From Paramagnetospirillum magnetotacticum MS-1 (GTDB taxonomy: Bacteria; Pseudomonadota; Alphaproteobacteria; Rhodospirillales; Magnetospirillaceae): a stretch of 64,000 nucleotides of DNA. Positions within the stretch are counted from its first letter, which is position 1, and each line of letters starts with the position of its first letter. Shown piece after piece: positions 46,463-59,858 of the stretch. Below the pieces are notes generated by a model, which was not told the origin of the DNA, ran no database searches, and was given only the letters and a program-made list of their open reading frames with translations. The translations under genes were made by a program, and so were the position numbers. Where the stretch lies: assembly GCF_000829825.1 (NCBI RefSeq), contig NZ_JXSL01000023.1, positions 62,001-126,000 on the forward strand, read 5' to 3'.

Positions 46463-46538
46463 GGGCGTATAGCTCAGTTGGTAGAGCAGCTGACTCTTAA
46501 TCAGCTGGCCCAAGGTTCGAGTCCTTGTGCGCCCACCA
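46463..46538 (+). tRNA. tRNA-Lys (anticodon CTT)
   Basis: 76-base cloverleaf with encoded CCA. Acceptor GGGCGTA pairs with TGCGCCC; D arm GCTC/GAGC; anticodon stem GCTGA/TCAGC with loop CTCTTAA (anticodon CTT at 46496-46498); T arm CAAGG/CCTTG with TTCGAGT loop. The 3' half from position 32 of the tRNA is duplicated at 59524: the gene is the integration site of the element that follows. Confidence 0.97.
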
Positions 46539-46545
46539 AATTCAG
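46494..46545 (+). repeat. left attachment site (in tRNA-Lys)
   Basis: 52-bp sequence identical to 59524-59575: 45 bases of the tRNA (from position 32 to the CCA end) plus AATTCAG. The match ends at both sides with single differing bases, so the repeat limits are exact. Confidence 0.95.
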
Positions 46546-46584
46546 AAAACCCTGCTAGGTCAATGACTTAGCAGGGTTTTTCCT
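46546..46584 (+). terminator. element-borne terminator after tRNA-Lys
   Basis: Inverted repeat AAAACCCTGCTA.../...TAGCAGGGTTTT (17-bp stem, one G-T pair) followed by a T-run, beginning at the first base inside the element. It takes the place of the tRNA's own terminator, which now lies at 59577. Confidence 0.85.
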
Positions 46585-46635
46585 TGCCCGAATCGGCTCG
46601 TTTTTAGGGTCGTTTTCGGCCTAATTGAGACCCAA

Positions 46636-46672
46636 TAGGTAACGCTACAGGTAACACGGCCTTATAGGTAAC
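46636..46672 (+). promoter_or_regulatory. three TAGGTAAC-type repeats near left end
   Basis: TAGGTAAC at 46636-46643 and 46665-46672 and CAGGTAAC at 46648-46655, all in the same direction, about 90-180 bases inside the element. The same octamer occurs three times near the right end. Candidates for integrase arm-type sites. Confidence 0.6.
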
Positions 46673-46680
46673 AGCGGCCG

Positions 46681-46944
46681 CTACCGCCGAACCGGCCCCG
46701 TCACCACTGGCGGCACCCCCGGCGACCCGGTGACGGTGCCCACGGTCATGCCGCGCGTATCGACCACATGCCAGTTGCCGGGCGACAGCTCTTTAAGCTG
46801 GCCGACCGTGTTGCCGTTGCGGTCAACGAGATAGTGCTGATTCCCAATGGTCCGTGTCCCCACGGCAGGCAGATCGGCCCCGAAAACGCGGGCGGCGATC
46901 AGCAGGGCCAGGACAGCGACGGCAAGGGCGGAGGGGTAGCGCAT
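46681..46944 (-). CDS. small secreted protein, unknown
   Basis: 87 residues from the ATG at 46944; the frame is open for five more residues. N-terminal signal peptide (YPSALAVAVLALLIAARVFG-type). The mature part has two similar short units (YLVDRNGNTVGQLKEL and HVVDTRGMTVGTVTG), suggesting a small beta structure, and a Pro/Val-rich end. Not recognised. First gene inside the left end of the element, so possible cargo. It reads toward the tRNA and stops inside the octamer-repeat zone. Confidence 0.55.
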   Translation of the reverse strand: MRYPSALAVAVLALLIAARVFGADLPAVGTRTIGNQHYLVDRNGNTVGQLKELSPGNWHVVDTRGMTVGTVTGSPGVPPVVTGPVRR

Positions 46945-47081
46945 GATCAAATGTCCCACTAGGCGACGGGGTCAATTTTTCCGCCCTTGACCCTGAGCGG
47001 AAATTTCGGCGGCATCAAGGCGACCTCGGTATTCCCACCGTCTCGGCCCAATAGGGCGTAGAGTCATGGTGGAGGCATATC

Positions 47082-47282
47082 ATGCAGTATGAAATCACTA
47101 TCAGCGGTCGGCGTGGAACTGAGAGCGAAGTCGAAGCCCAAGAGGTCGTTCGCCTACTGGTCAGCGCCTTCAAGTCCGTTGATGCGAGCTATAACCTTGA
47201 TATCTGGAACACCAAAAACAACACCGTTGTCATGGCCGTGCACGGGGTTGGGAAAAGCGTGCCCGTGATTCAGGTGATGTAG
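47082..47282 (+). CDS. small hypothetical protein
   Basis: 66 residues (MQYEITISGRRGTESEV at the start, a central amphipathic helix VVRLLVSAFKSVDA, then beta-like VVMAVHGVGKSVPVIQV). Preceded by GGAGG nine bases upstream, which supports a real gene. No family recognised. It converges with the gene ending at 47283. Confidence 0.55.
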   Translation: MQYEITISGRRGTESEVEAQEVVRLLVSAFKSVDASYNLDIWNTKNNTVVMAVHGVGKSVPVIQVM

Positions 47283-47561
47283 TCAAGCTCCGACCGCCTC
47301 GCGCCACCACGATTCCGTAAGCCAGGGTCGGTGCAGCTCCCAGCCCCGGCAATGTCGCCGCAGGCGGAACCGGCACCGGCCACCAGGGTATGACGGCCCG
47401 GCGGCCTCGAAGGCGAAGCCAAGGGCCTGCAGCTCGGCCAGGGCGTCGGAATAGGTAGGGTCGAGGTAGACGCCACGCGCGCCCATGTCGATAGCGGCAT
47501 AAGCGACGCAGGCGGTCATGCCTTCCAGGGGCAGGGCGACAGCATCGAGCTGGAAGGTCAT
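47283..47561 (-). CDS. small hypothetical protein
   Basis: 92 residues. N-terminal half is hydrophobic-acidic (MTFQLDAVALPLEGMTACVAY, GVYLDPTYSDALAELQALGF); the C-terminal half is rich in Arg, Trp and Cys. Starts two bases after the stop of the gene at 47564, so the two are probably one unit. Not recognised. Confidence 0.45.
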   Translation of the reverse strand: MTFQLDAVALPLEGMTACVAYAAIDMGARGVYLDPTYSDALAELQALGFAFEAAGPSYPGGRCRFRLRRHCRGWELHRPWLTESWWREAVGA

Positions 47562-47563
47562 GA

Positions 47564-47770
47564 TCAGCCCTTGGCCATAGCCTCGACAATGGCGACAATT
47601 TTGGCGTCGATGAGCCTCGGCGTAGACCGCTTCCCCGCCGACAACGGCCGTCCGGTGAGAACGGCCGCTATGCCGGTTGATGACCCAATTCGGCCTTTGA
47701 TCAGCAACGCAGCAGCGTTACTGACACCGAGTGAGGCGTTTTGGTTCGATACTGCGCCAAATACTATCAA
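47564..47770 (-). CDS. small hypothetical protein
   Basis: 68 residues with a basic C-terminal half (GRPLSAGKRSTPRLIDAKIVAIVEAM). Support is only that it is tightly followed by the gene at 47283-47561 on the same strand; base composition upstream turns AT-rich. Not recognised; may be spurious. Confidence 0.35.
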   Translation of the reverse strand: MIVFGAVSNQNASLGVSNAAALLIKGRIGSSTGIAAVLTGRPLSAGKRSTPRLIDAKIVAIVEAMAKG

Positions 47771-47936
47771 CTATAACAATATATCTTGCAGCAATCCTCA
47801 CGCAATGGGGCGCATTCCCTTTGCCTGACGGCTTGTCATCATTTAATAGGTATTTACCACCGCAATATACCGGGTTAATACGAATGGTTTATATAGGGTT
47901 TCAATCCAAAAGATGACCTGAGTGCGAGGAAGTGAC

Positions 47937-50339
47937 ATGACGGGAAGTGGGGGAATGGGCAGCATTCTCAGCAAATTTTCGCTGAAAATGCAGATTGGCT
48001 CACTTGTCGGTCTGGCCGGTATCATCCTACTGGTCTGTGCCGCGTCTCTTTGGATTGGAGGAGCATCCATTGAAGCCTCAAAGGCTGTGGCTACCAAAGA
48101 AAGCATTATAGGTGGGCAGGCAGCGGAGATGGATCGCGCCTTGCTCAATGCCCGCCGCCACGAAAAGGACTTTCTGCTGCGTAAAGATGCCAAGTATGTC
48201 GCAGAGCATGGCAAATCCTTAAAACTCGCTCATGCAGCCCTGGATTCCATGGTGTCGGCTATGGCTCCACAGGACCCACGACGAGGACAGGTCGAGACGG
48301 TGCGCCGAGGTCTCGCCAACTATGAAAATCTGTTCGCCAAGACTGCTGCGGGCTGGACCCGAGTGGGTCTAACGGAAAAGGACGGCCTGATGGGAACCCT
48401 TCGGGGATCTGTCCATGATGCTGAAACCATCCTAAAAGACCATGACGACCTGCGGTTGGCCAACCTCATGCTGATGATGCGTCGTCACGAGAAGGATTTT
48501 CTTGCCAGACTTGATCCGAAATACATTGACGAGATTGACACCCGGGTTGCCGAGTTTGGAAAGGCCCTCTCAGTTTCGGTAATTCCGACTAACATACGCC
48601 CGACCGTGCTTGATCGGATCGGCAGTTACCAGCGGGATTTCAAGGCTGCTGCTGCTGGGCTTCTCGATCTCGTTGCCACGACCAAATCCCTGAGCGAGAG
48701 CTACGCGGCTATTGCTCCTGTCATCACAGAACTGGTGGAACAGGCACACGCCGGGATGGTCGCATCGACAGATCAAGCTGAGTCGATTGGCAATGCCGTT
48801 AGCCGAATGCTGAACCTTGTCATGCTGGTCGGCTTTGCAGCCATGGTGATTATCGGGACTGCGATTACACGCTCCGTATCTCGCCCCATTGAGGGCATAA
48901 CGAGGGTCATGGGTGAGTTGGCGGGCAATAACATATCGGTCATGGTGCCCTTCACCGAGCGTGGCGACGAAATCGGGGCCATGGCCAAGTCGGTCAGCCA
49001 CTTCAAGGATCAATTGGGGCGCGTCAAGCAACTAGAGGCCGACCAAGCGGAGCAAAAACGTCGAGCCGAGGCGGACCGGCATGCCGCAATGCACCAGTTG
49101 GCTGACACGTTCGAGGAAAGTGTCGGTCAGGTAATCCACACCGTCACTTCGGCAGCTACCGAACTACAAGCCGCGTCGAGCCAGATGGCGGGCACAGCAG
49201 CCGAGACCAGCGCACAGGCGACCACGGTCGCGTCGGCGGCCCAGCAGGCATCGGCCAACGTCGAAACCGTCGCTGCCGCGACCGAGGAATTGACGTCATC
49301 GATCAATGAGATAGCACATCAGGTTGAACGCTCCCTCACCGTCTCGGATCGTGCCAGCGAAGAAGTAGGAGAGACTACGGCACAGGTATTGGCGCTGGCT
49401 GATACCGTCGGCAAAATCGGAGAAGTCGTCCAACTGATCAACGACATCGCCGCTCAGACCAATCTTCTCGCACTCAACGCCACAATCGAAGCGGCTCGGG
49501 CTGGTGAAGCAGGCAAGGGCTTCGCCGTCGTCGCTGGTGAGGTCAAGAATTTGGCCAACCAGACCGCGAGAGCGACCAGCGAAATCACTGGTCAAATCCT
49601 GGCAGTTCAAGAAGGCACGCATGCTGCTGTCGGAGCCATCGAGCGCATTGCAAAGATTATCGCGGAAATGAGTGAGACGAGTTCGGCTGTGGCGGCGGCG
49701 GTCCATCAGCAGACTGCTGCGACTGGCGAAATCGCCCGCAACGTTGAGCAGGCGGCAGTCGGCACGGACGAGGTATCGAGAAACATCGGTTCGGTCGAGA
49801 TGGCTGCCAGGGACACTGGGGCCGCCGCCGAGCAGATAGCAGAATCCTCTGCCGACCTCTCCAAACAGGCAGAGTTCCTTCGTCACGAGGTTGGCCGGTT
49901 TCTAACCCAAGTGCGGGCCGACAAGAAGCACATGACCCTATTGGAGTGGGATGTCTCCTTCGACACTGGCATTGAAGCCATCGACCGGCATCATCGGGGT
50001 TCGTTTAATCAAGTGAATGAATGTTATCGCCAGATGATGTCGGGTGATGGCGGCCAGAATTCGCTCGTCCTACTCTTAGATGTCGCTGAGCGAATGAAGC
50101 AGCATTTTGGTGAAGAAGAGGAGGAAATGGCTCGGCACTGCTACGCTGGTGCCGATGACCATCGCGGTAGCCACAAGTTATTTATTGATCGTATGAGCGA
50201 GCTGCTACGTGCTGTCGAACTCAAAAATCCCGATGCTGAATCTGAGATGTTCAACTACATCACCTCATGGCTTCGACACCACATCGTCAAGGATGACAAG
50301 CCCCTTGCTATATTTCTCCGGGACAAGCTTGTCGCCTGA
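47937..50339 (+). CDS. methyl-accepting chemotaxis protein with HBM sensor and C-terminal haemerythrin domain
   Basis: 800 residues from the ATG at 47937 (GAGGA upstream). Membrane helix 1 (about 20-43); periplasmic helical bimodular (HBM) sensor with its paired signature RRHEKDFL at about 73-80 and again at 181-188; membrane helix 2 (about 285-305); HAMP; cytosolic signalling domain with [25 protein letters not shown] and [13 protein letters not shown]; then from about residue 666 a bacteriohaemerythrin domain with the di-iron ligands in [24 protein letters not shown] and LRHHIVKDD. Chemoreceptors of this kind (DcrH type) couple O2 or redox state to CheA. Its DNA is less GC-rich than the host genes around, in line with transfer on the element. 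It reads opposite to the replication genes. Confidence 0.93.
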
Positions 50340-50579
50340 TGCCGACGTTAAAACAACTTTGGTTCTAGAGGTGTGTCAAAGTTTGGTGCTGGAAGCCAAG
50401 CCATTGCGGACGGCTCAAATTGGCACTGACCCGGCATAGCGGACGTTCTTTGTGAACGGCGGGTGTCTGGGGTAGAGCGGTCAGACACGGCCAGAGGCAT
50501 CATCGGGGACATTGCCACGGCGAGAGCCCTGCCCATATAGGCGGTTAGGTGTTTGCCCCAATCGATTAGGGACGAAAAG

Positions 50580-51056
50580 TCAGAGGAATTCGTCCCATTC
50601 GCTCTTGGTCGTCGCCTCGGATTCCTTGATTCCCAGGCGCGACCGCGAGAGAAAGTGCAGCCCCAACTCGCCCGCCAGACCTCGAAGACTGCGAGACGTT
50701 GATTCAATCACCAATCCAAAGGGCGAGGTCTTGGAGCCTCCAGCGGCAGTCGGAATGGCGATCCCGGTCTCGGCCATGGCGGCGACGGCTTGGCGGTAAA
50801 CCGACCACTGTTCGCAATAGAGTTGCAAGTGATTGCGATCCAGGGGCGACAGCATACCTCGCTCGCGCAGCAGGGGTGCAAGGCGTTGCCATTCCGCCAG
50901 GGCGACGCCTTGCAACTCTGGCGGCGGGGCGGTCACGTTGTCGGCCGGTGCTTCCTTGACGGCTTTGATGTTCTTTTTCGGGGTAGCGGTCCCGGCTTTG
51001 CACCGGGTCCCCTGCAGTCGGTGTATTTCAGCAGACTTGGCCAGTGCACCACGCAT
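50580..51056 (-). CDS. phage terminase small subunit, P27 family
   Basis: 158 residues. Pattern of the P27 (terS) family: N-terminal basic region, PPPELQGVALAEWQRLAPLL, LSPLDRNHLQLYCEQWSVYRQAVAAM, then GIAIPTAAGGSKTSPFGLVIES and a C-terminal GLHFLSRSRLGI. It recognises phage DNA for packaging together with a large terminase; none is encoded in the window. Ribosome-binding site GGAGGG before the ATG. A small terminase without the large one is a hallmark of satellites that redirect helper-phage packaging. Confidence 0.88.
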   Translation of the reverse strand: MRGALAKSAEIHRLQGTRCKAGTATPKKNIKAVKEAPADNVTAPPPELQGVALAEWQRLAPLLRERGMLSPLDRNHLQLYCEQWSVYRQAVAAMAETGIAIPTAAGGSKTSPFGLVIESTSRSLRGLAGELGLHFLSRSRLGIKESEATTKSEWDEFL

Positions 51057-51403
51057 TTCGAGCCTCCCTCCTGTAGGATAAAACTACAACATATCAATAT
51101 GATAGCACGGATCGCCGGGCGGCGAAAATAAGTTTGGGCATCGGGCCTACCCGCGTTTTTCCCCGGCGTCGGTGAAGCACCCCCGTTCCTGTAGTGATTT
51201 GCCATCCCCCCGGCTATTATCAGGTTGCTAATCGTGATGCTCAAGCCTCCCGATTAAGAACTCAGCTGGTGCTAATGACGCTCGCCGCGATATGGCTAAA
51301 TATTGTCACGGCCAGCACGCTTCTCGAGACAACATGAAAAAGCCGCATCCCGGTTACGGGATGCGGCTTCATTCAGGAAGACGCTTGAAAGTAGCGGATA
51401 GCC
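51057..51403. other. intergenic region between terS and phasin genes
   Basis: About 350 bases. It holds the phasin terminator (51335-51370) and, further on, a mixed-composition stretch with no gene-like frame. A promoter for terS is expected near 51060-51130; none is obvious. Confidence 0.5.
51335..51370 (-). terminator. intrinsic terminator of the phasin gene
   Basis: 13-bp perfect stem AAGCCGCATCCCG/CGGGATGCGGCTT with a four-base loop, followed on the minus strand by TTTTT. Confidence 0.9.
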
Positions 51404-51751
51404 TTACTTCTTAGCGGACTTCTGCGCGGCTTCGACCTGCTTCTTGACCGGTTCGAAAGCGGCGGTGAAGACGGTGGTGGTCAGTTCGGCAATCTTGCTG
51501 CTGTCGGCGACAGCGGCGTCAACGGCCTCTTTGACCAGCTTCTGCTGCAACGAGAGGAAATCTTCCGGCGACTTGACCGAGGCCAGTGCCTGGATGGAGG
51601 CGGTCAGCTTCTCGGCATTCTTCGTGGCCAGAGCCTGATAAGCCTTGGCCAGTTCCTGGAAACCGGCGATGGCGGCATTGCCGCTCTGGGTCAGGGCTTC
51701 GGCATTGGCTTTGGCGGCTGTGGTGATCTGGTCGAAAGCGGCGGTCGGCAT
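51404..51751 (-). CDS. phasin family protein (PHB-granule associated)
   Basis: 115 residues from the ATG at 51751; a longer frame to 51802 is open. Helical, Ala/Lys/Gln-rich phasin pattern: FDQITTAAKANAEALTQSGNAAIAGFQELAKAYQAL in two adjacent stretches, LASVKSPEDFLSLQQKLVKEAVDAAVADSS, and KKQVEAAQKSAKK at the end. Phasins coat polyhydroxyalkanoate granules and control their size. It has its own terminator and sits between terS and the primase gene, an unusual place for a storage protein; it looks like cargo. Confidence 0.85.
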   Translation of the reverse strand: MPTAAFDQITTAAKANAEALTQSGNAAIAGFQELAKAYQALATKNAEKLTASIQALASVKSPEDFLSLQQKLVKEAVDAAVADSSKIAELTTTVFTAAFEPVKKQVEAAQKSAKK

Positions 51752-51927
51752 TGAGATTATCCTTGGTTTGGGTTTGCGCACGATAATGCTGCGCTGCAAC
51801 ATGCCCCCTTTATACGTACGACATAGAGAAAATCAAGAGAGATGTTGCGGCGCAGCATTTCGGGATTGTCATAGCCCAAGAGCGTCAGTGCCGCCACCGT
51901 CTCAGCCCAAATCCGCACGACCACCAT

Positions 51928-54900
51928 CTAGCCCGTCAGGTCAGCACTGCTTTGCGCTGCCGACACAGCGGCCACGATTGTCTGATCGAAACCAGGACGC
52001 GACAACCACTCGTGCAGCATATCGGCATCGCCAGACAACTGGACACGACCATCGCCCAGCGCCACCATGGCCATATAGTTGCACTTGGCTCTAACTGGCT
52101 CACAGACGGCCAGGGCACCAGCCCAGACCGTGACGGCGGCGGCGACAGCGGCGGCGGTCGGATAGCGTTCGGCGTCCACCAGGATGGTTGCACCCTTCCG
52201 CTTTCCTGCGGTCTGGTAGCGGTATTCGGTAAAGGTGCGAATATCGGTGGTTCTCCTATAGGAGTCTCTTATAGGAGTTTCACCGATATTCGCGCTTATC
52301 AGCCAAGACCGGACAGAATCCAGTTGCTCCTTGATCTCCGGGTGATCCCGGAACCATTGCCGGGCCGCGTCGGCAGGGTCGGCCGCCTCGCCGAACAACT
52401 CCTTGCAGACTCCAGCGACACCGGCCCAATTGGAGGGCACCAGCCCACGGGCCAGCATCAGCCCGACCGGGTCCACCCCATTTATCACGCTATCCCAGGT
52501 CACCCATTCGTCGATCTCGATGGGCAAGGGTACATTGGTCATAATGACAATCTCCACGGGGTTGGCGGCCGTCCGGCGAACAGATCGGGCGCGGGCTTCG
52601 GCCTGGATCAGCGGGGCGTCGGTAATCTGCCATCGGATCGCCTCGGCGTCGGCATCAGGATGGTAATCGGCGGTCATCGGGCGGCCACTACCACCCCGGC
52701 CAAGGGCGACCACCTCGGCCCTCAGATAGCGGTCACCCTCGACCGGCACCGGCAACCGCCCAAACAGAACGGACGCTATATCCTCGGCCACCCGTACCGG
52801 GACCATAGGCCGGGAAACGGTCCAGACTTTGGCCACGTCCCGCCAATCGTCCACCCCGGTAAAGTCGCCAAAATGAGTGACGTCGGTTGCACCCATGCGG
52901 GCCGGATCAGTCAGCGTCTTAGGGGTGGCCATACCGATTCCTGCAAGGTGCGCCTCGGTGTCCTGGGGCATGATGGCCAGCCCGCGCTTGCCCTCGGCGG
53001 CCAGGGCCGCAGCCTCGATCTCCAACAGCAACCCCGACCGCTCGGCATTGTTGGCGGCGGTCACGGCATCCTTGCCAGTGACCTTTTTTCCGGGGGCAAT
53101 CTTCCGGTAGGCCACGGCCGAGTCATAGACCTGGATGCGGCGGGCATGGGGCGCAATCGCCTCGGCCTCGGCCACCACCAGGAAGCCCGGCAAGAACGCC
53201 TCGGCCAAGTGGGGATTCATCGTGGCATCAAGGTGCAGGATAGGCGCGGCCAGCCATGCCGGGCGGATATCCTCCCGCCAGCGGATTCGGACACCCTCGA
53301 CGGCGACACCGCCCACCGGAATGGTCCCACGCACCAGATAGCAGGCTTCCGGCTCCGCATGGTCCATCAGATGGACAACGCCAGCCCAGAACCGGGCGCA
53401 GGCGACCGACCGGCGGTTATTGTCGGCCCATTGCGCCGTGGCCTTGTCCACTTCGTCTTTGGTCATGCCGGGACGGATCACGGAGTCCAAGTCATGCTTC
53501 GCGTTCAATGCCAGCTTGCGCGCCTCGGCCGCCATGGTGGCCGTGATCCCGGCCGCCTCGAATGCTTCACGCGAAAGACGGCCATGGGTGGCCGCTTCCG
53601 CAATGGCGGCGGCCAGCGATGCATACCGCCTGTAGGCATCCTCAGCAGCTTTGCGGGCGGCCTCGCGCTCCGCCTCGGACAGCGCCACCAGCTTGCCGTT
53701 GATCCGGGTGGACTTCCGGCCCAGATCGAACTTGGGGCCGCGCTTTAGCTCGTCGAGGGTGAGACCGTAGGGCCGCTCCACACCGCCGGTCATGCCCAAC
53801 CAGGGGGATTCATCGATAATCACAACGTCAAAAGGGTCGCGCCCCTCCCGCTTGAAAACCTTCGGCGGCGGGCTGGTCAGGGCAGCATGGGCGAAAATCC
53901 AGATACTGGCGACCTGCGATTCCTGTCGGCGATAACCGCACGGGGCGATGGGCTTGGACGGGTGGTCCGGGTGGAATGGGCAATACACCCGCTTCATGCC
54001 CTTGCCCTTCACGCACAGGGCATCACGGCCGCCACCAGCCCGGCGCAGCACCTCGGCCGCCTCTTCATTGGGGCACATCCGGCGGCCGGGATTCTCGGGG
54101 TCTTCGCGTTCGGCTCCGCGCCAGATCGCGGCCACCGGCTTGCCCGCCATGGCGTTGATGCGGGCGGCGATCCCGTCCGACAGGCGATGGGTCGGCACCA
54201 TGATGGCTATCAAAATGTCCGGGTGATCGGCGACCAAATCCAGGGCAAGCCGGATAGCCACTTCGGTCTTGCCAATGCCCGCGCCGACCTTCGCGCCCCA
54301 CCGGGGAATGTCGGTATCCTGGGGCCGGTCAAACAGCTTATCCGCCAACCCGGACACCAGCCCATAATCGTCGTCGGATTCCCCGCTGTCCCCCGTCCGG
54401 GCGGCCACCAGGGCAGCTTGACGGCGGGCGGCGTGTTCCGGCACGGCGGCGAAGAAAGGGGCCAGGGCGGCCCGCAGATCGGCGGCGGCTTCGTCGGCGG
54501 TCATGGTGGGCGCGGGGAAGTCCGGCTCCGGTGATCCGACCCAACCATTACGGCGGGCGTCGCGCAGGATGGTGGCACATGTCACACCACCGGCCGCCCC
54601 TCGGGGTTTCAGCCCGGCCCATGTGGTTTCCGTATAGTCGGCGTCGTATTTATCCGACCTCTCCGACCAATCCCGCCAGAGGTCGAATCCGTCCTCGCCG
54701 AACGCGCCTTTCAGGGCATAGGCATAGCGGACCCAGTCATGGTAATCGGCATCATTGGGCACATGGGCCAGCGCCTCGGCGACCCGCGACAACCCCACGT
54801 TGTTGCCGGTTACCGAGGTGCGCCGATCACCTCCGCTTGTGATCGCCGATCTACCGCCCTTCGACACCGCGCCATGGCGCGCCAGGATCACGCGGACCTC

Positions 54901-55518
54901 GGCCAAGAACGCCTCGACCATCTCGGCCGTGATGGCGGTCAGGCGATCATGGGGCCACGCCAGAAGGTCGCCGGACGGCCACTGGTACGGCTTGCCAGTG
55001 CCTGGGTGGATGGCGGCGGCAACAAACTGTTTCCCGCCGCCGGACAGCACCTCGACATTGTGCCATTTGTAGCCCTTGGCGGCGGTATCATCGCCCGGAA
55101 AGGCGCACTCGCCGACACTGGTGTACGGCATGTCCTCGGGGCCGCTATAGACCCGCAAACGCTTCGGCCATGCGCCGATGCGGACAGGGGCCGGGCCGAG
55201 GATTCGCTCGGCGGCGGCGTCGATCTCGTCGGCCGCCTCGGGGTGCCGGACGTCAATATCGATGGCCGGGGTGGCCAGGGCCAGAACGCCAATGCCGTAT
55301 TTGGCGGTGCAGGGATCGATGGACCATTCCGCGACCTGCTTAACGGTCAGGTTCCGGGCGTGGATCGGCCATCCCCTCTGATCCGGCCGCTTGGTGCCAG
55401 GGTCCACCGGGATGACGTAATACCCGGCGCGGCGATAGGCGACAGCGTCCCGGCCGAAATACGGCGGCGCGTCATCCTTGCCCACATCGGGCGAATCTGG
55501 TACATCATGAAAGGTCAT
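51928..55518 (-). CDS. primase-polymerase/helicase replication protein
   Basis: 1196 residues. N-terminal Prim-Pol domain (YRRAGYYVIPVDPGTKRPDQRGW; acidic AIDIDV at about 85-90; GGGKQFVAAAIHPGTG), a PriCT-2-like segment (VAEALAHVPNDADYHDWVRYA, about 245-305), then a helicase-like ATPase part with Walker A GAGIGKTEVAI (about 413-423), a Cys-rich insertion (about 480-530), Walker B VVIIDESPW (about 565-573), and a long C-terminal region. Such proteins initiate replication of satellites and plasmids (P4-alpha and PICI Rep/Pri analogues). SD AAGGTAAG. A strong palindrome (52238-52292) lies in its 3' part. Confidence 0.85.
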   Translation of the reverse strand: MTFHDVPDSPDVGKDDAPPYFGRDAVAYRRAGYYVIPVDPGTKRPDQRGWPIHARNLTVKQVAEWSIDPCTAKYGIGVLALATPAIDIDVRHPEAADEIDAAAERILGPAPVRIGAWPKRLRVYSGPEDMPYTSVGECAFPGDDTAAKGYKWHNVEVLSGGGKQFVAAAIHPGTGKPYQWPSGDLLAWPHDRLTAITAEMVEAFLAEVRVILARHGAVSKGGRSAITSGGDRRTSVTGNNVGLSRVAEALAHVPNDADYHDWVRYAYALKGAFGEDGFDLWRDWSERSDKYDADYTETTWAGLKPRGAAGGVTCATILRDARRNGWVGSPEPDFPAPTMTADEAAADLRAALAPFFAAVPEHAARRQAALVAARTGDSGESDDDYGLVSGLADKLFDRPQDTDIPRWGAKVGAGIGKTEVAIRLALDLVADHPDILIAIMVPTHRLSDGIAARINAMAGKPVAAIWRGAEREDPENPGRRMCPNEEAAEVLRRAGGGRDALCVKGKGMKRVYCPFHPDHPSKPIAPCGYRRQESQVASIWIFAHAALTSPPPKVFKREGRDPFDVVIIDESPWLGMTGGVERPYGLTLDELKRGPKFDLGRKSTRINGKLVALSEAEREAARKAAEDAYRRYASLAAAIAEAATHGRLSREAFEAAGITATMAAEARKLALNAKHDLDSVIRPGMTKDEVDKATAQWADNNRRSVACARFWAGVVHLMDHAEPEACYLVRGTIPVGGVAVEGVRIRWREDIRPAWLAAPILHLDATMNPHLAEAFLPGFLVVAEAEAIAPHARRIQVYDSAVAYRKIAPGKKVTGKDAVTAANNAERSGLLLEIEAAALAAEGKRGLAIMPQDTEAHLAGIGMATPKTLTDPARMGATDVTHFGDFTGVDDWRDVAKVWTVSRPMVPVRVAEDIASVLFGRLPVPVEGDRYLRAEVVALGRGGSGRPMTADYHPDADAEAIRWQITDAPLIQAEARARSVRRTAANPVEIVIMTNVPLPIEIDEWVTWDSVINGVDPVGLMLARGLVPSNWAGVAGVCKELFGEAADPADAARQWFRDHPEIKEQLDSVRSWLISANIGETPIRDSYRRTTDIRTFTEYRYQTAGKRKGATILVDAERYPTAAAVAAAVTVWAGALAVCEPVRAKCNYMAMVALGDGRVQLSGDADMLHEWLSRPGFDQTIVAAVSAAQSSADLTG
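52238..52292. repeat. strong hairpin inside the primase gene
   Basis: Outer arms of 12 bp (CGAATATCGGTG / CACCGATATTCG) and inner arms of 8 bp (CTCCTATA / TATAGGAG), separated by a three-base internal loop, close a 9-base loop. The 20 paired positions are perfect. It lies in codons about 1076-1093 of the primase. Possible origin, single-strand initiation site, or control element. Confidence 0.8.
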
Positions 55519-55577
55519 AGTTACTTACCTTTTACGGCCGCTCGGATTGGTCCTCCGGGCGGCCGTTTTCATTGGTT

Positions 55578-55934
55578 TCAGTCGGGCGACAATGCCCTCG
55601 GCTTCGGGCTGGACAAGGCGACCAGCCTCACAGGCCCGGCGGTCAGTATGGCGTGGCCGACCCAGGCAGCGAGACCGGGGGCGCGGCGGGCCGCCTCAAG
55701 GGCGGCGTCGCGGTCCTCGGCCACCAGGGCGGCGACCATTTCGCAGATGACCGGCTTAGGGGCACCGGCCTTGAAGAGTTTGGACAGCAAGGCGGCCCGG
55801 ATTTCCGGGGCGGCTGCATTGACCAAATTCGCGGGGGCGTACTTTTCGCCCTTCATGGCCAAGTCGAAATGCCGGGTCAGATGATCCGGCAGCCATGCCC
55901 GGACGGCGGCCAGGGCGTAGTGGGGGGCGGTCAT
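55578..55934 (-). CDS. hypothetical protein
   Basis: 118 residues, Ala-rich and helical (HYALAAVRAWLPDHLTRHF, LLSKLFKAGAPKPVICEMVAALVAEDRDAALEAARR). Ends 59 bases before the primase gene on the same strand, so it is part of the same transcript. Weakly resembles small proteins found beside primases in satellites, but I recognise no family. Confidence 0.6.
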   Translation of the reverse strand: MTAPHYALAAVRAWLPDHLTRHFDLAMKGEKYAPANLVNAAAPEIRAALLSKLFKAGAPKPVICEMVAALVAEDRDAALEAARRAPGLAAWVGHAILTAGPVRLVALSSPKPRALSPD

Positions 55935-55974
55935 TCGACCGCCCCATTACGCCCATATAGGTAAGGGGCGGAGG

Positions 55975-56775
55975 TCACCAGCACCCCCCGACCCGATCGA
56001 ATTCGCCCCGGAAATCGTCGAGCTTCTTCAGCAACGCGACCGCGTCAGCAAGCCGCATTTCGCCACGTTCGACGGGCTTTGCTTCAGCGAAAAATTCTTC
56101 CTGATCAGCCGCAGCTTCGGGGATTGTGAGGCCCTTCGGCGAAAGCGTCGAATGAAAGCGGTAGTTCGCCACCTTCCAGACCCAAAGACCGCCGTGGAGG
56201 TCTGATGCCTCCGCCATGCCAATCCTGGCCAGAAGAGCGACCCCGCGATCCTTGAGGTCGTAATAATCACGCTTCACAAAAGCATGCTCCCGCGCAATGC
56301 CGTACATCTTGCGCCGATACGTTGCCGATGCCGCATCGCGGCGGCGCTTTGCCGCACGGTTGACCGCGAAAATGGCTTTCGCGATGTTTTCCGGTGTCGC
56401 CTCCACCTCGACCGGCACCACCGGCGGGCGGCGGCGGCGACCGGAAGGGCGGACTTGATTGGCCGACCACCAGTCGCCCCACCCAGACCAGCACCACTTC
56501 GACTTGGCGGGAATCGCATCGGGGATCGGCTCATAGCCGAGGCGTCGCCATTCGGTCGTATTCTTGAGGTCAGGTTCGTCCCGGACAAGGAAGGCGGCGA
56601 CCTCATCCAAGGTCGCCTCATAGGCGCAGCCGAGAACCACGTTGTTGCGGAAATCGACGAGTTGATACAGCCCTTGATTATTGCTGTGGGGCTGGCCACG
56701 CAGGCGCGACTTGATCAGGCGGTGATCCAGGCGAGCGGCCTTGCGGCGGAGGGCGGATTCGGTGATGGTCATCAT
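55975..56775 (-). CDS. hypothetical protein
   Basis: 266 residues. Basic N-terminal half (RRKAARLDHRLIKSRLRGQ), a hydrophobic YQLVDFRNNVVLGCAYEATLDEVAAFL segment in two parts, Trp-rich motif WCWSGWGDWWSA near residue 95, then an Arg-rich linker and helical C-terminus. Its start overlaps the stop of the 129-residue gene by four bases. Not recognised; the basic content suggests nucleic-acid contact. Confidence 0.6.
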   Translation of the reverse strand: MMTITESALRRKAARLDHRLIKSRLRGQPHSNNQGLYQLVDFRNNVVLGCAYEATLDEVAAFLVRDEPDLKNTTEWRRLGYEPIPDAIPAKSKWCWSGWGDWWSANQVRPSGRRRRPPVVPVEVEATPENIAKAIFAVNRAAKRRRDAASATYRRKMYGIAREHAFVKRDYYDLKDRGVALLARIGMAEASDLHGGLWVWKVANYRFHSTLSPKGLTIPEAAADQEEFFAEAKPVERGEMRLADAVALLKKLDDFRGEFDRVGGCW

Positions 56776-57161
56776 GCGGCCTCCCCGGCGGCGACCCGCT
56801 CCGACAGGATGCTATTCATGACGCCGATCAGCGGCACAAGCATGCCGCACGGCATGTCGGCGGTAATGCCGCGCAACAGCTCCGCCAACAAGTCAACATA
56901 GTCTTCGCTCGGGTCATTCCGGGCAACGTCGGCCATGTGCTCGGCCAGAGCCGAACCGACCGCGCCCTTGTCGAACTTGTACGCGGCCATGAGGGCGGCC
57001 ATGGGGTCGAGGTTCTGACCTTTGAACTTGGTGAACTGTGTGGCCACGGGGGCGACCTTGTTGCGAGTGTTGAACTTGTTGATCTCGACGGCCAGGGCGA
57101 TCTCGACGTCGGCGAAATGCGACAAGAAACGGGCGAGGGTAGCGGGGCGATTGGTATTCAT
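56772..57161 (-). CDS. hypothetical protein
   Basis: 129 residues with helical pattern (RFLSHFADVEIALAVEINKF, LDPMAALMAAYKFDKGAVGSALAEHMADVA, YVDLLAELLRGITADM). SD AAAGGAAT upstream of the ATG. Just upstream are two GTAACGCGTTAC-like palindromes, possible operators of this transcript. Not recognised. Confidence 0.6.
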   Translation of the reverse strand: MNTNRPATLARFLSHFADVEIALAVEINKFNTRNKVAPVATQFTKFKGQNLDPMAALMAAYKFDKGAVGSALAEHMADVARNDPSEDYVDLLAELLRGITADMPCGMLVPLIGVMNSILSERVAAGEAA

Positions 57162-57191
57162 GATGATTCCTTTCGGGGAAATTTGGGGGTG

Positions 57192-57232
57192 GTAACGCGT
57201 TACTTTCGGCGTCCCGGCTGGTCACGCGTTAC
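57192..57232 (-). promoter_or_regulatory. paired GTAACGCGTTAC palindromes
   Basis: A perfect 12-bp palindrome at 57192-57203 and an imperfect copy (GTCACGCGTTAC) at 57221-57232, centre spacing 29 bases, i.e. close to three helix turns, upstream of the 129-residue gene. Candidate binding sites of an element-borne repressor or of AlpA. Confidence 0.55.
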
Positions 57233-57329
57233 CTCGCTGGTAGGCGAGACGGATCAGCTCCTTGAGGCGACGCGCGCCTTGGGCGTTGTATTCGTGGAGG
57301 GCGTCGTTGAAGGCGTTGGAGATAGTCAT
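57222..57329 (-). CDS. small ORF, 35 residues
   Basis: Reads MTISNAFNDALHEYNAQGARR and continues to a stop at 57222. The ATG overlaps the stop codon of the AlpA-like gene (ATGA), which implies translational coupling. Helical and charged. Not recognised; too short to be sure. Confidence 0.5.
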   Translation of the reverse strand: MTISNAFNDALHEYNAQGARRLKELIRLAYQRGNA

Positions 57330-57520
57330 GCGGCAACCCCATTGTTGGAGTTGCGGAGCGACGCGGCCCAATTGGCGATAAGGTCCGCTTCCCAGGCGAT
57401 GGAGCGGCCAAAGCGAATCGGTGCGGGGAACTTGCGTTCGTCAATCATCCGCTTGAGCGTCATGCGGTTATTGACGATTCCTTGTTCGACAAGGTCTTTA
57501 TATCGCAGAAGGGTTTTCAT
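57326..57520 (-). CDS. AlpA/excisionase-like HTH protein
   Basis: About 64 residues from the ATG at 57520 (GGAG nine bases upstream); a GTG at 57538 is an alternative. Winged-helix of the AlpA/MerR-like type: LLRYKDLVEQGIVNNRMTLKRMIDERKFPAPIRFGRSIAWEADLIANW in pieces, with the typical 'FP-P-R-G-...-W' wing. AlpA activates integrase or excision in P4-like elements and PICIs. Between the small HTH gene and the unknown small genes, same strand as the integrase. Confidence 0.83.
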   Translation of the reverse strand: MKTLLRYKDLVEQGIVNNRMTLKRMIDERKFPAPIRFGRSIAWEADLIANWAASLRNSNNGVAA

Positions 57521-57598
57521 GGGGGTGATCTCCGTCACTTGTTGTAACTGGAGAGCACCCTAGCCAAACCGTCCGGGAAGATGCCCCGGTGTTCCCAA

Positions 57599-58036
57599 CT
57601 ATTTTTTCGGCAGCAATCCCATGTCGCGCAGCCCGCGATTCACCGCCCTTTTGACGGTGTCCGGCTTCATACCCATGTCCTTGGCCAGTTTCTGCAACAC
57701 GGCCTCTTTACTCTGTCGAGAATTCCGGGCTTGTGCGAGCTGGTACAGCTCCGCCCACTTGCGGTCACGGTCAATGGTGGTGCGGAGCTTCCCACCCTCG
57801 GAGGACCCATCAAGCGACACCAGACTCCGGGCCGCTTCTCGGTGCAGTTCCAGAAATTCGATAACGTCATGGATCGCCGCTTCGGCGGCGTCCTCGGCTC
57901 CTTTTCGGTAGGTGGCGCAGGACTCGGCGGAGTATCCCCCCTCCTCATAATTGTCGGCCAGATTGCGGGCTGTCTTACGGAGCATCCGTTCGAGCATGGC
58001 CTTCAGTGATTCGGCCCGTTCTTTCGCTGCGGTCAT
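57599..58036 (-). CDS. HTH-containing hypothetical protein
   Basis: About 145 residues from the ATG at 58036. Helical N-terminal part (AKERAESLKAMLERMLRKTARNLADNY; EDAAEAAIHDVIEFLELHRE) and a C-terminal segment KEAVLQKLAKDMGMKPDTVKRAV that looks like an HTH. Its start lies 60 bases inside the 3' end of the integrase gene, so the two overlap. Function unknown; regulator is an inference. Confidence 0.6.
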   Translation of the reverse strand: MTAAKERAESLKAMLERMLRKTARNLADNYEEGGYSAESCATYRKGAEDAAEAAIHDVIEFLELHREAARSLVSLDGSSEGGKLRTTIDRDRKWAELYQLAQARNSRQSKEAVLQKLAKDMGMKPDTVKRAVNRGLRDMGLLPKK

Positions 58037-59327
58037 TCTCCCCCCCCACCACCTTGGCGACAAAAGCATCCCAGTCGGCGAACAGCTTCTTTTTCTGGGG
58101 GAGATATTTGGCGCGGTTGTAGACGCCAGCCACACCAGCCTTCGTCCCGGATATATGGTTTACGGCAGCCTCAACGATGTGCGGATCGGCGTCTAGTTCG
58201 TCGCCAGCCATGGTGACAAAGGTCCGCCGAATATCGTGGAAGGTCCAGCCCGGCATAGGCTTGCGCTCATCCTTGGCGCGGCGGGCGGCGATGGCGGTAT
58301 CTATCCGCTTCTTTGCCTTCGAAAATCCCGAAATCGGTGCCTTTGTCGTCGTGGTCAATATCCACGGGCAACGGCGGTACTTCGGCAGTCCGCCCAAGAT
58401 GGTGGTGGCCGTCTTGGCCAGAGGAATCAGGTTGTCGCGGCGATTCTTGGTCCGCTCACCCGGCAGCGTCCAAAGTGGCCCCTCCCCATCCAGGTCCGCG
58501 AACTCCGACCACACCGCCTCGGCCACCTCCTTTTCGCGTTGGCCGGTCAAAATCAACAGCTTGACCATGGGCCCGAAGGGATGCCCTACGGCATCGGCTG
58601 CGGCCCAGACGTCGCGCAACTCCTCTACCGATAGCACCCGATCCTTGGTGACGGCCGCTTGCGGTTTGGGGACCGTGAGGGTGGGTGGAACTTGGATCAA
58701 ATCGCGCTCCGCACACCAGCGAAAGAATTTTGAGAAGTACCGGCGTTGCGAGGCAGCCTTGGCCAGGGCGCCCCGTGCGGTGATGGCGTCCAGCACGTCC
58801 AGCACATCGCGCTTACTGATCTCGGTCACCATCTTGTCAGTCCAGGCGGCCACGTCGGTGCCTTGTAGAGCGGCTTTGTATGCCCGTGCGGTGCTATCCC
58901 TGAGCCCGCCCTTGGCTTGCCCGACATGTTTGGCCATGAAATCCTTCACCACGGCCGGGAACAGCAACTTGGCATTTACCGCCCGTTGGGCCTCTTGCAT
59001 CTGGGCATTCGCGGCCTCGCGCTCGGCCCAAACAATCCGAGGGTCTTTTCCCACGGAGGCAATCGCCATGGCGTCCTTTGCCTTGGTGCGTGCCTCTTCC
59101 AGGGCGTCGCGGCGCATCTTTTCATCCACGGCATCGGCGGGATACCAGCCGAGGGTGATACGGGTCAGCTTGGACCCGATCCGCAGCAGCGCGAAGAAGG
59201 TCTTAGCCCCAGAGTAATTCGCACGCACGCCGAAGCCGGATGTGGTGGCGTCGTTATAATCGACCTGCCCGGCGGCGGGCGGTGCCATCCGGTCCAGAGC
59301 CGCGACGGTGAGTTTCATCTTGGGCAT
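57975..59327 (-). CDS. int: tyrosine recombinase/integrase (P4-type)
   Basis: About 450 residues from the ATG at 59327 (GAGG upstream); the open frame extends to 59426, but that part covers the octamer repeats. N-terminal DUF4102-like arm-binding domain (LTVAALDRMAPPAAGQVDYNDATTSGFGVRA pieces), a core-binding domain (FMAKHVGQAKGGLRDSTARAYKAAL), and a catalytic domain with Arg264 (TGQREKEVAEAVW), His364 and Arg367 (FHDIRRTF), His391 (VNHISG) and the nucleophile Tyr403 (GVYNRA). Lies just inside the right att site and presumably integrated the element into tRNA-Lys. Confidence 0.96.
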   Translation of the reverse strand: MPKMKLTVAALDRMAPPAAGQVDYNDATTSGFGVRANYSGAKTFFALLRIGSKLTRITLGWYPADAVDEKMRRDALEEARTKAKDAMAIASVGKDPRIVWAEREAANAQMQEAQRAVNAKLLFPAVVKDFMAKHVGQAKGGLRDSTARAYKAALQGTDVAAWTDKMVTEISKRDVLDVLDAITARGALAKAASQRRYFSKFFRWCAERDLIQVPPTLTVPKPQAAVTKDRVLSVEELRDVWAAADAVGHPFGPMVKLLILTGQREKEVAEAVWSEFADLDGEGPLWTLPGERTKNRRDNLIPLAKTATTILGGLPKYRRCPWILTTTTKAPISGFSKAKKRIDTAIAARRAKDERKPMPGWTFHDIRRTFVTMAGDELDADPHIVEAAVNHISGTKAGVAGVYNRAKYLPQKKKLFADWDAFVAKVVGGENDRSERTGRITEGHARTDAP

Positions 59328-59337
59328 GCCGACCTCA

Positions 59338-59395
59338 TAGGTAACATAGGTAACACGAGTCGGAACTCGGACAGCGCGGCATGCGCTGTTACCTA
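59338..59395 (-). promoter_or_regulatory. TAGGTAAC repeats at right end, upstream of int
   Basis: TAGGTAAC at 59338-59345 and 59347-59354 in direct orientation, and its inverse GTTACCTA at 59388-59395. They lie between the int start codon and the right att site. Integrase arm sites or an int autoregulation operator. Confidence 0.6.
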
Positions 59396-59523
59396 TTGTA
59401 ATATACAGTGATATCAGATTGAGCAATATCCTTGTGTTTTGGCGGCTTATGCCGCTATGGACTCGCTAACCTTTTGGCCGATTTGTTATGTCGTGAGATA
59501 ACAGGATACCCCGCCGCAACGGC

Positions 59524-59575
59524 CTCTTAATCAGCTGGCCCAAGGTTCGAGTCCTTGTGCGCCCACCAAATTCAG
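59524..59575 (+). repeat. right attachment site
   Basis: 52-bp copy of the 3' half of tRNA-Lys and seven following bases, identical to 46494-46545. It lacks the 5' half of the tRNA, so it is not a gene. Confidence 0.95.
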
Positions 59576-59614: not shown

Positions 59615-59858
59615 TGGCCACCCCCGGATTGGTCAGGAAGGCTGTCATTGGTTTGCAGCCCATTCCGCAAGTGGTTTGCAAACTCGTTCCCTACGAGTTC
59701 CCATCACCGCCCCTCCCGGCCCCTTAACCGGCGCTTGCTGGTTTTGAGCATTCACCGGGGGAGGGTCAATCATTCCGCCTTTCGACCGGACCAGAACACC
59801 GCTACATTACCGACCGCCAAGCGAATTGGCCTTATATTGTAGTTTTACGAGTCTGGAT

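What the first reader, a model, noticed from the sequence alone, without database searches (positions are those of the whole stretch)
46494..59575. A 13-kb phage-satellite-like element in an alphaproteobacterium
Direct repeats of 52 bp at tRNA-Lys bound an island with integrase, AlpA-like regulator, primase-polymerase/helicase and a lone small terminase, but no virion, lysis or conjugation genes. Order and size match Gram-negative phage-inducible chromosomal islands. Satellites are little described in magnetotactic-type Rhodospirillales, so this may be a new family.
Basis: partly seen in the sequence, partly recalled or inferred. Interest (0 to 1): 0.87.

Follow-up and report, generated by a model that had tools for sequence, protein, structure and literature searches.

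The report
Magnetospirillum phage-satellite island with origin-like hairpin
A 13-kb mobile island in a Magnetospirillum relative looks like a parasite of phages and, like related prophages and plasmids, carries an unusual DNA hairpin hidden inside its replication gene that may be where its DNA copying starts.

Summary
A 13.03-kb element lies between exact 52-bp repeats in tRNA-Lys; the empty site is clear in one congeneric genome and consistent in others. It encodes integrase, a weak AlpA-like regulator, a PrimPol-helicase and a lone P27-type TerS; no virion or lysis gene was recognised. A chemoreceptor and a phasin are cargo. I read it as a phage-satellite-like island that replicates itself and borrows a helper's terminase and capsid (inferred; 0.6). 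Reduced prophage is the main rival (0.27): related elements carry TerS, protease and portal, and prophages with TerL share the helicase, though these form a separate shallow clade. The unexpected part is the replication module. The helicase is DinG/XPD-like, and near the 3' end of its gene lies a 50-64-nt two-storey hairpin found in 50 of 52 homologous loci. Its arms vary in sequence yet stay 95% Watson-Crick paired, without G-T excess, in shifting codon phases. I propose a DNA-level origin or priming site shared by satellites, plasmids and prophages. Rfam holds no such family at threshold, and the few paper searches made did not find it. Function is untested; plasmid GC skew gives mixed support.

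The parts
46463..46538 (+). tRNA-Lys(CTT), integration target
   Evidence: ARAGORN; Rfam RF00005
46494..46545 (+). attL, 52-bp repeat (3' end of tRNA-Lys)
46681..46959 (-). p92, small protein, marker shared with other elements of the genus (G003, G008, G014, second island of own genome)
47283..47561 (-). 92-aa ORF, 69% identical over 90 aa to an ORF of the G014 TerS/protease/portal element
47922..50339 (+). chemoreceptor with HAMP, MCP signal and hemerythrin domains; taken as cargo
   Evidence: Pfam
50580..51056 (-). TerS, P27/Terminase_4 small terminase subunit
   Evidence: Pfam 3e-20; phrog_83
51339..51370 (-). terminator-like hairpin after phasin gene
   Evidence: consensus match only
51404..51802 (-). 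phasin, taken as cargo; 84% nt identical to a phasin locus about 1.4 kb from tRNA-Lys in G014
   Evidence: Pfam
51928..55518 (-). primase-polymerase (Prim-Pol, PriCT_2) fused to DinG/XPD-like helicase
52237..52293 (-). two-storey hairpin (outer stem 13 bp, 3x3 internal loop, inner stem 8 bp), candidate origin or priming site, inside the helicase ORF
55578..55934 (-). 118-aa protein, unknown
55975..56775 (-). 266-aa protein, unknown
56772..57161 (-). 129-aa protein, unknown; first gene after alpA
57192..57232 (.). two palindromic operator-like sites GTAACGCGTTAC (57192-57203 exact, 57221-57232 one mismatch) between alpA and p129
   Evidence: 2 found in the whole window, 0.04 expected
57326..57538 (-). 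AlpA-like regulator/excisionase (weak)
57599..58036 (-). HTH-like protein (Pfam 0.005, below cut-off) overlapping the 3' end of int by 62 nt, placed like the iolg gene of PICMI satellites; start at 58036 is my choice
   Evidence: passages of PMC10803314
57975..59426 (-). tyrosine integrase with Arm-DNA-bind_3 domain
59524..59575 (+). attR, 52-bp repeat

Best explanation
An integrative phage-satellite-like island. Shown: it is inserted site-specifically in tRNA-Lys between 52-bp repeats, with an empty site in a relative, and keeps open reading frames for integrase, replication protein and TerS. Inferred: on helper-phage infection or induction the AlpA-like protein, with the int-overlapping gene, switches on excision and the p129-to-TerS genes through the GTAACGCGTTAC pair; the PrimPol plus DinG/XPD-like helicase copies the circle, starting or priming at the 57-nt hairpin inside its own gene; the lone TerS then steers a helper's TerL and procapsid to the island DNA. 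The chemoreceptor-hemerythrin and phasin genes are passengers. The hairpin is the part I think new: a DNA-level cis site, probably the origin or single-strand priming site, carried inside the helicase coding sequence across islands, small plasmids and prophages of Alphaproteobacteria (confidence in an origin or priming role about 0.5; that it is a conserved DNA-level element about 0.9).
Against: No induction, packaging or helper data. The closest TerS relatives lie beside portal and protease genes (G014 50% identity, G003 34-37%). In TerL prophages the same helicase stands 4-9 kb upstream of TerL, so gene order alone does not separate satellite from reduced prophage. The AlpA call is below Pfam cut-off. 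GC skew is mixed: its detrended minimum lies 3.8, 7.6, 1.7 and 0.2 kb from the hairpin in the four plasmids tested, and in the last the hairpin itself is a weak match. No iterons beside the replication gene. Neither the window's PrimPol-helicase nor its integrase was found in viral contigs as single-protein queries. The arms compared were chosen on the same alignment, and related sequences inflate the contrast.
Confidence: 0.6

Rival explanations
1. A reduced prophage: the ancestor had TerS, TerL, portal, protease, capsid and tail, and the middle was lost or replaced by the chemoreceptor gene; what remains is an inert or only self-excising remnant.
For: Left end (p92 and the 47283-47561 ORF) and TerS match a G014 element with protease and a split portal; G003 has TerS, protease, portal and a fragment resembling tail fibre J in one 14.25-kb repeat-bounded element; prophages with TerL share the helicase.
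Against: No remnant of TerL, portal or capsid was recognised in the window island; G003 and G014 share the order TerS, small ORFs, protease, portal without a recognised TerL between them, which looks like a maintained set (not every G014 ORF was scanned); TerL prophages are a separate shallow clade.
Confidence: 0.27
2. A self-replicating integrative element or integrated plasmid that is not packaged; TerS is a relic or has another role.
For: The same helicase plus hairpin occurs in small plasmids with ParA-type genes where the only virion-type genes recognised were a TerS (L101) or a head protease (L099); the G008 and M. fulvum loci show no TerS by similarity (the M. fulvum contig ends about 0.9 kb past the helicase).
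Against: TerS of two families follows the helicase, directly in M. aberrantis and R. mucosa and after the phasin cargo in the window, hard to explain without packaging.
Confidence: 0.13
3. Hairpin rival A: an RNA element in the mRNA of the helicase gene (regulation, processing).
For: It lies in a coding region and would also fold as RNA; RNAalifold -24.1 kcal/mol.
Against: Non-Watson-Crick cells show no G-U excess (3 of 19); it pairs on both strands; Rfam has no match at gathering threshold at the hairpins of the window, M. aberrantis and G008 and only sub-threshold microRNA matches at hairpins of four relatives.
Confidence: 0.15
4. Hairpin rival B: a site-specific recombination, dimer-resolution or mobile palindromic element site rather than an origin.
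For: Architecture recalls integron attC or phage telomere sites (recalled, not tested); M. aberrantis has a second copy near its far end, in an ORF that shares 40 aa with the helicase.
Against: At one fixed place in one gene in the loci examined; in the three genomes that hold the short pattern it occurs only there.
Confidence: 0.25

Closest known systems
Gram-negative PICIs (EcCICFT073 type; PMC6092414: abstract, sections 6 and 11, and passages seen)
   Same: int, AlpA, primase, some with terS; 12-15 kb; genes transcribed in one direction from int; no structural or lytic genes recognised in this island
   Different: No iterons beside the replication gene but a hairpin inside it; DinG/XPD-like helicase; genes not exclusive to islands (plasmids and prophages share them); chemoreceptor cargo on the other strand
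PICMI satellites of Vibrionaceae (PMC10803314: start of abstract, passages)
   Same: Order int, int-overlapping gene, alpA, small ORFs, primase
   Different: PICMI115 has six genes, fis target, and the search model uses DUF3987/DUF5906 primases; here PrimPol-helicase, TerS, two cargo genes, tRNA target
cfPICIs, P4-like satellites, PLEs (recalled)
   Same: Helper-dependent replicating islands
   Different: No full head module here (cfPICI); P4 psu/sid and PLE genes were not searched for by name; the G003 and G014 elements carry only TerS, protease and portal of a head module as far as recognised
Origin or priming site inside or beside a replication gene: lambda O, pT181 repC, RSF1010 ssi hairpins (all recalled)
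   Same: Cis element in or near the rep gene; ssi sites are hairpins used by a dedicated primase
   Different: No sequence relation tested; DinG/XPD-like helicase and a two-storey hairpin with variable arms not reported for these as far as I recall

Membership tests
Gram-negative PICI (criteria as in PMC6092414) | Gene organisation with integrase, replication module, master regulator | tested here: met
   AlpA support is weak in Pfam (0.017)
[quoted passage not shown]
   for the window island; not so for the G003 and G014 relatives
Gram-negative PICI (criteria as in PMC6092414) | Size typically around 12-15 kb | tested here: met
   13,030 bp between repeats
Gram-negative PICI (criteria as in PMC6092414) | att site never used by prophages | tested here: inconclusive
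   Six congeneric tRNA-Lys flanks examined, one clearly and three to four probably empty; no other integrase above 45% identity in 149 genomes at E 1e-30; prophage use of the site not surveyed
Gram-negative PICI (criteria as in PMC6092414) | Origin with two iteron sets around an AT-rich region just 3' of the replication gene | tested here: not met
   Repeat scan of 51800-52700 shows only scattered pairs and the 13-nt pair inside the hairpin; iterons with indels could be missed
Gram-negative PICI (criteria as in PMC6092414) | PICI-exclusive genes | tested here: not met
   Helicase family in plasmids and TerL prophages
Gram-negative PICI (criteria as in PMC6092414) | Phage-dependent induction, packaging, interference | not testable with these tools
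   needs culture and phage
PICMI | int, alpA and DUF3987/DUF5906-type primase next to fis | tested here: not met
   tRNA-Lys target; primase is Prim-Pol/PriCT_2
DinG/XPD-like Fe-S helicase (helicase part) | SF2 fold of DinG/XPD type with four cysteines between Walker A and the DE box | tested here: met
   iron binding itself not tested
Temperate phage (prophage) | TerL, portal, capsid, tail genes | tested here: not met
   none recognised in the island ORFs scanned nor by tblastn with gpA TerL, portal, protease and capsid queries

The most novel reading that the evidence does not exclude
The helicase-embedded hairpin is a new class of replication origin or priming site: a structurally recognised DNA hairpin with interchangeable arm sequence, paired with a DinG/XPD-like replicative helicase and either a PrimPol or a Toprim primase, and shared by phage satellites, small plasmids and temperate phages of Alphaproteobacteria. 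Around it lies a satellite lineage that carries varying fragments of a phage head module (TerS alone; TerS, protease and portal; protease alone), with a lone capsid gene in a separate island.
Probability: 0.42. Interest if true: 0.78.

Novelty: new variant of a known kind. Interest (0 to 1): 0.62.

Why it matters
It would extend phage satellites to magnetotactic-type Alphaproteobacteria and give a marker, helicase plus hairpin, for finding more of them. A hairpin whose sequence drifts but whose pairing is kept would make origin recognition by structure testable in a small replicon. One related island (G008) lies in a single-contig 4,967,148-base genome, which from memory is the size of the Magnetospirillum magneticum AMB-1 chromosome, a strain with genetics; if so, tests could start there.

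Tried and rejected
Single-protein viral-contig scans with the whole PrimPol-helicase and the integrase found no relative; the helicase alignment did. The whole PrimPol-helicase hits 251 phage records, in the 20 rows listed only over its N-terminal primase part. A hand-drawn stem on alignment A4 was misplaced by columns and scored no better than its shuffles; the RNAalifold stem was used instead, so the arms were chosen on the data, and the partner shuffle does not remove relatedness. GC skew of four plasmids is mixed. Rfam found no family at threshold in L038, L039, L052 or, besides tRNA, in the window; sub-threshold hits at the hairpins of four relatives were microRNA models. PDB sequence search with A1 gave nothing meaningful. 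sigma-70 promoter scan: 1 found, 3.9 expected. The genome-contig scan used one peptide pattern, so its 29 loci are no census.

Mistake corrected: two queries labelled TerL and portal were a ParB/DNA methyltransferase and an antisense frame (found); TerL was redefined and the census and tree redone. G003 was left out of the tree because I gave a range out of frame; it is, on a long branch. A TerS call for plasmid pCMU02 was dropped: Pfam and PHROGs call that ORF DUF5681 or unknown. Outside the fully bounded islands the TerL search is limited by flank length and by the query family; for the M. aberrantis and G008 islands the Pfam summary shows 25 of 47 families, with seven of their proteins scanned singly.

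Not found in print: searches (open-licence PMC only). Searches returned 0 papers; only asked about an origin with inverted repeat and only about the helicase type. Of the papers listed, two were opened: PMC6092414 (abstract, sections 6 and 11, passages) and PMC10803314 (passages).
Full report
What is there. The stretch 46494-59575 lies between exact 52-bp repeats 13,030 bp apart; the left one is the 3' part of tRNA-Lys(CTT). Six congeneric flanks were examined for an empty site. In G008 the same tRNA runs into sequence matching the window for 158 nt beyond attR (86% over 218 nt, repeat included). In G010, G013 and G016 the match runs 38-48 nt beyond attR, over the tRNA terminator (89-90% over 100-109 nt in all); in G009 33 nt beyond (80% over 94 nt), weak; in G014 only the repeat matches. 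The source genome G000 is unnamed, but by the tool's kinship its genus includes G015 and G006, whose contigs have the lengths of records named Magnetospirillum fulvum MGU-K5 (111,131 bp) and Magnetospirillum sp. SS-4 (42,518 bp).

Gene content. From attR inward, on the minus strand: tyrosine integrase; an HTH-like protein (Pfam 0.005) overlapping int by 62 nt; an AlpA-like protein (Pfam 0.017, PHROG 0.0013); three unknown proteins; a 1196-aa PrimPol-helicase; phasin; TerS (PF05119 3e-20). On the plus strand: a chemoreceptor with hemerythrin domain. Near attL: two small ORFs. Two palindromic 12-mers, GTAACGCGTTAC with at most one mismatch, lie between alpA and the next gene; 2 found in the window against 0.04 expected. 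The phasin with its own terminator-like hairpin is 84% nt identical to a phasin locus in G014 about 1.4 kb from tRNA-Lys, so I treat it as cargo.

Related elements. With the C-terminal helicase (alignment A1) one peptide pattern found 29 loci in the genome-contig collection, all with titles that I read as alphaproteobacterial, and 13 in IMG/VR. tblastn found matches in 18 of 72,556 plasmid records, one of them filed as Bacillus safensis, and in 0 of 50,697 phage records for two queries. Bounded by direct repeats in the data held: M. aberrantis 13.3 kb and G008 8.4 kb, with int and primase-helicase, and G003 14.25 kb at tRNA-Met. G010 has an 8.3-kb island with the same insertion sequence as M. 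aberrantis and G008 but a D5_N/Prim-Pol protein instead of this helicase. M. aberrantis and the Roseomonas mucosa plasmid have a Terminase_2 TerS right after the helicase. G003 has P27 TerS, S78 protease and PF04860 portal; among ten of its proteins given to Pfam and eight to PHROGs no TerL was recognised. Its protease also matches a PHROG named major head protein, over positions 10-176 of 626 only, and a 193-aa ORF weakly matches tail fibre J (2.1e-5). G014 has a similar set with the portal in two ORFs. Plasmid p546-7 has a lone head maturation protease. The own genome has a second island, 5.67 kb between 53-bp repeats (96% identical) at tRNA-Met, with a capsid gene (PF05065 4e-19), a p92 homologue and an integrase 72% identical to that of G003 over 425 columns. 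TerL_nuclease PF20441 has no match in the own genome; other TerL families were not searched there.

Satellite or decayed prophage. gpA-type TerL (62% identical to a Rhodobacter phage TerL) lies about 4-9 kb downstream of the helicase in 11 of the 58 loci searched (L064, L067, L070, L086, L087, L089, L090, L093, L096, L097, L098; L086, L087 and L089 look like duplicate records of L064, L070 and L067). In the tree of 36 helicases the six TerL rows used are on one side of a 100/100 branch; the window groups with M. fulvum, G008 and M. aberrantis at 99/97. Long branches (window 1.7, G003 4.4) and an arbitrary root limit this. I read it as an old TerL-less lineage rather than a recent loss, at 0.6 against 0.27 for reduced prophage.

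The hairpin. At 52237-52293 inside the helicase ORF is a two-storey palindrome. Of 52 helicase loci examined, 50 have a counterpart near the 3' end of the gene: 43 score 16 or more; the window hairpin lay outside the stretch searched there and comes, L088; L040, L076, L080, L099 and L101 score 13-14 and align in A4 or duplicate a row of it. L063 has none and L102 only a weak model match (E 0.0033). At least four pairs look like duplicate records (L040/L080, L064/L086, L067/L089, L070/L087). G003 has it too. Control: of 256 random 800-nt windows from the same loci, 12 reach score 13 and 1 reaches 16. In 32 aligned sequences RNAalifold finds 15 pairs, all with changes on both sides; in the 13 outer pairs 391 of 410 cells are Watson-Crick, 3 G-T and 16 other (6 gaps set aside), against 55% mean and 66% maximum Watson-Crick when partners are shuffled among sequences. 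Seven examples fold as single-stranded DNA into an outer stem, an internal loop or bulge and an inner stem, z -6.6 to -9.4. GC is 43% against 65% in flanks, lower in 32 of 32. The ORF runs through it in 36 of 37 cases, in different codon phases, so the peptide is not what is conserved; residues 672-690, which it encodes, include most of a stretch with pLDDT under 50. The covariance model hits 1 of 289 genomes of the class, the own one, under strict filters that lose weak matches; whether the others hold the helicase was not tested. The short pattern of the window's core occurs once in each of three genomes and not in three others, two of which (G006, G015) have a hairpin with another core.

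Function. I propose an origin or single-strand priming site: it is fixed to the replication gene, present in three plasmids whose 62 scanned ORFs show no known Rep initiator (25 of 26 families shown), and conserved as DNA structure. Against: the detrended GC-skew minimum lies 3.8, 7.6, 1.7 and 0.2 kb from the hairpin in L099, L100, L101 and L102, mixed support at best, and nothing functional has been tested. Recombination site and RNA element are the rivals. Gram-negative PICI origins lie just 3' of the replication gene with iterons (PMC6092414 section 6); the repeat scan finds none here.

Conclusion. The satellite reading is probable but unproven. The replication module with its internal hairpin is the result most worth testing.

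Noticed in passing
L133 4580-10330 (G000:C20, own genome): Second repeat-bounded island, 5.67 kb at tRNA-Met, with a lone capsid gene (PF05065), a weak MerR-like protein, a p92 homologue and an integrase.
   Followed up: partly
L122 372-14691 (G003:C37): 14.25-kb tRNA-Met element with P27 TerS, prohead protease, portal, a tail-fibre-J-like fragment, a replication protein with the hairpin, and a ClpP-like gene (weak); no TerL recognised.
   Followed up: partly
L038, L039, L052: Three islands in different genomes share the insertion sequence CTCCTAGACGTGAAGCCTCCCTGTTTGACTT; the host gene or RNA at that site was not identified and Rfam has no match at threshold.
   Followed up: partly
L038 2585-2641: Second hairpin copy in M. 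aberrantis, in a 271-aa ORF that shares a 40-aa stretch (55%) with the helicase C-terminus.
   Followed up: partly
window 59826-61478: 550-aa ORF right of attR has no relative in the other 16 congeneric genomes searched; the tRNA-Lys right flank is a variable region.
   Followed up: no
G003:C72:12529-12580: A copy of the tRNA-Lys repeat (94%) away from the tRNA, suggesting that G003 also has, or had, an island there; no island protein matched in the flanks held.
   Followed up: partly
L134 (G003:C76): A p92 homologue (75%) on a contig that also holds a chemoreceptor gene (50% to the window's over 366 aa), an HNH-like ORF and a RepB_primase protein.
   Followed up: no
L100 (pCMU02): Helicase-hairpin plasmid of Methylorubrum extorquens CM4 carries two annotated flagellin genes and FlbT genes as cargo.
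   Followed up: no
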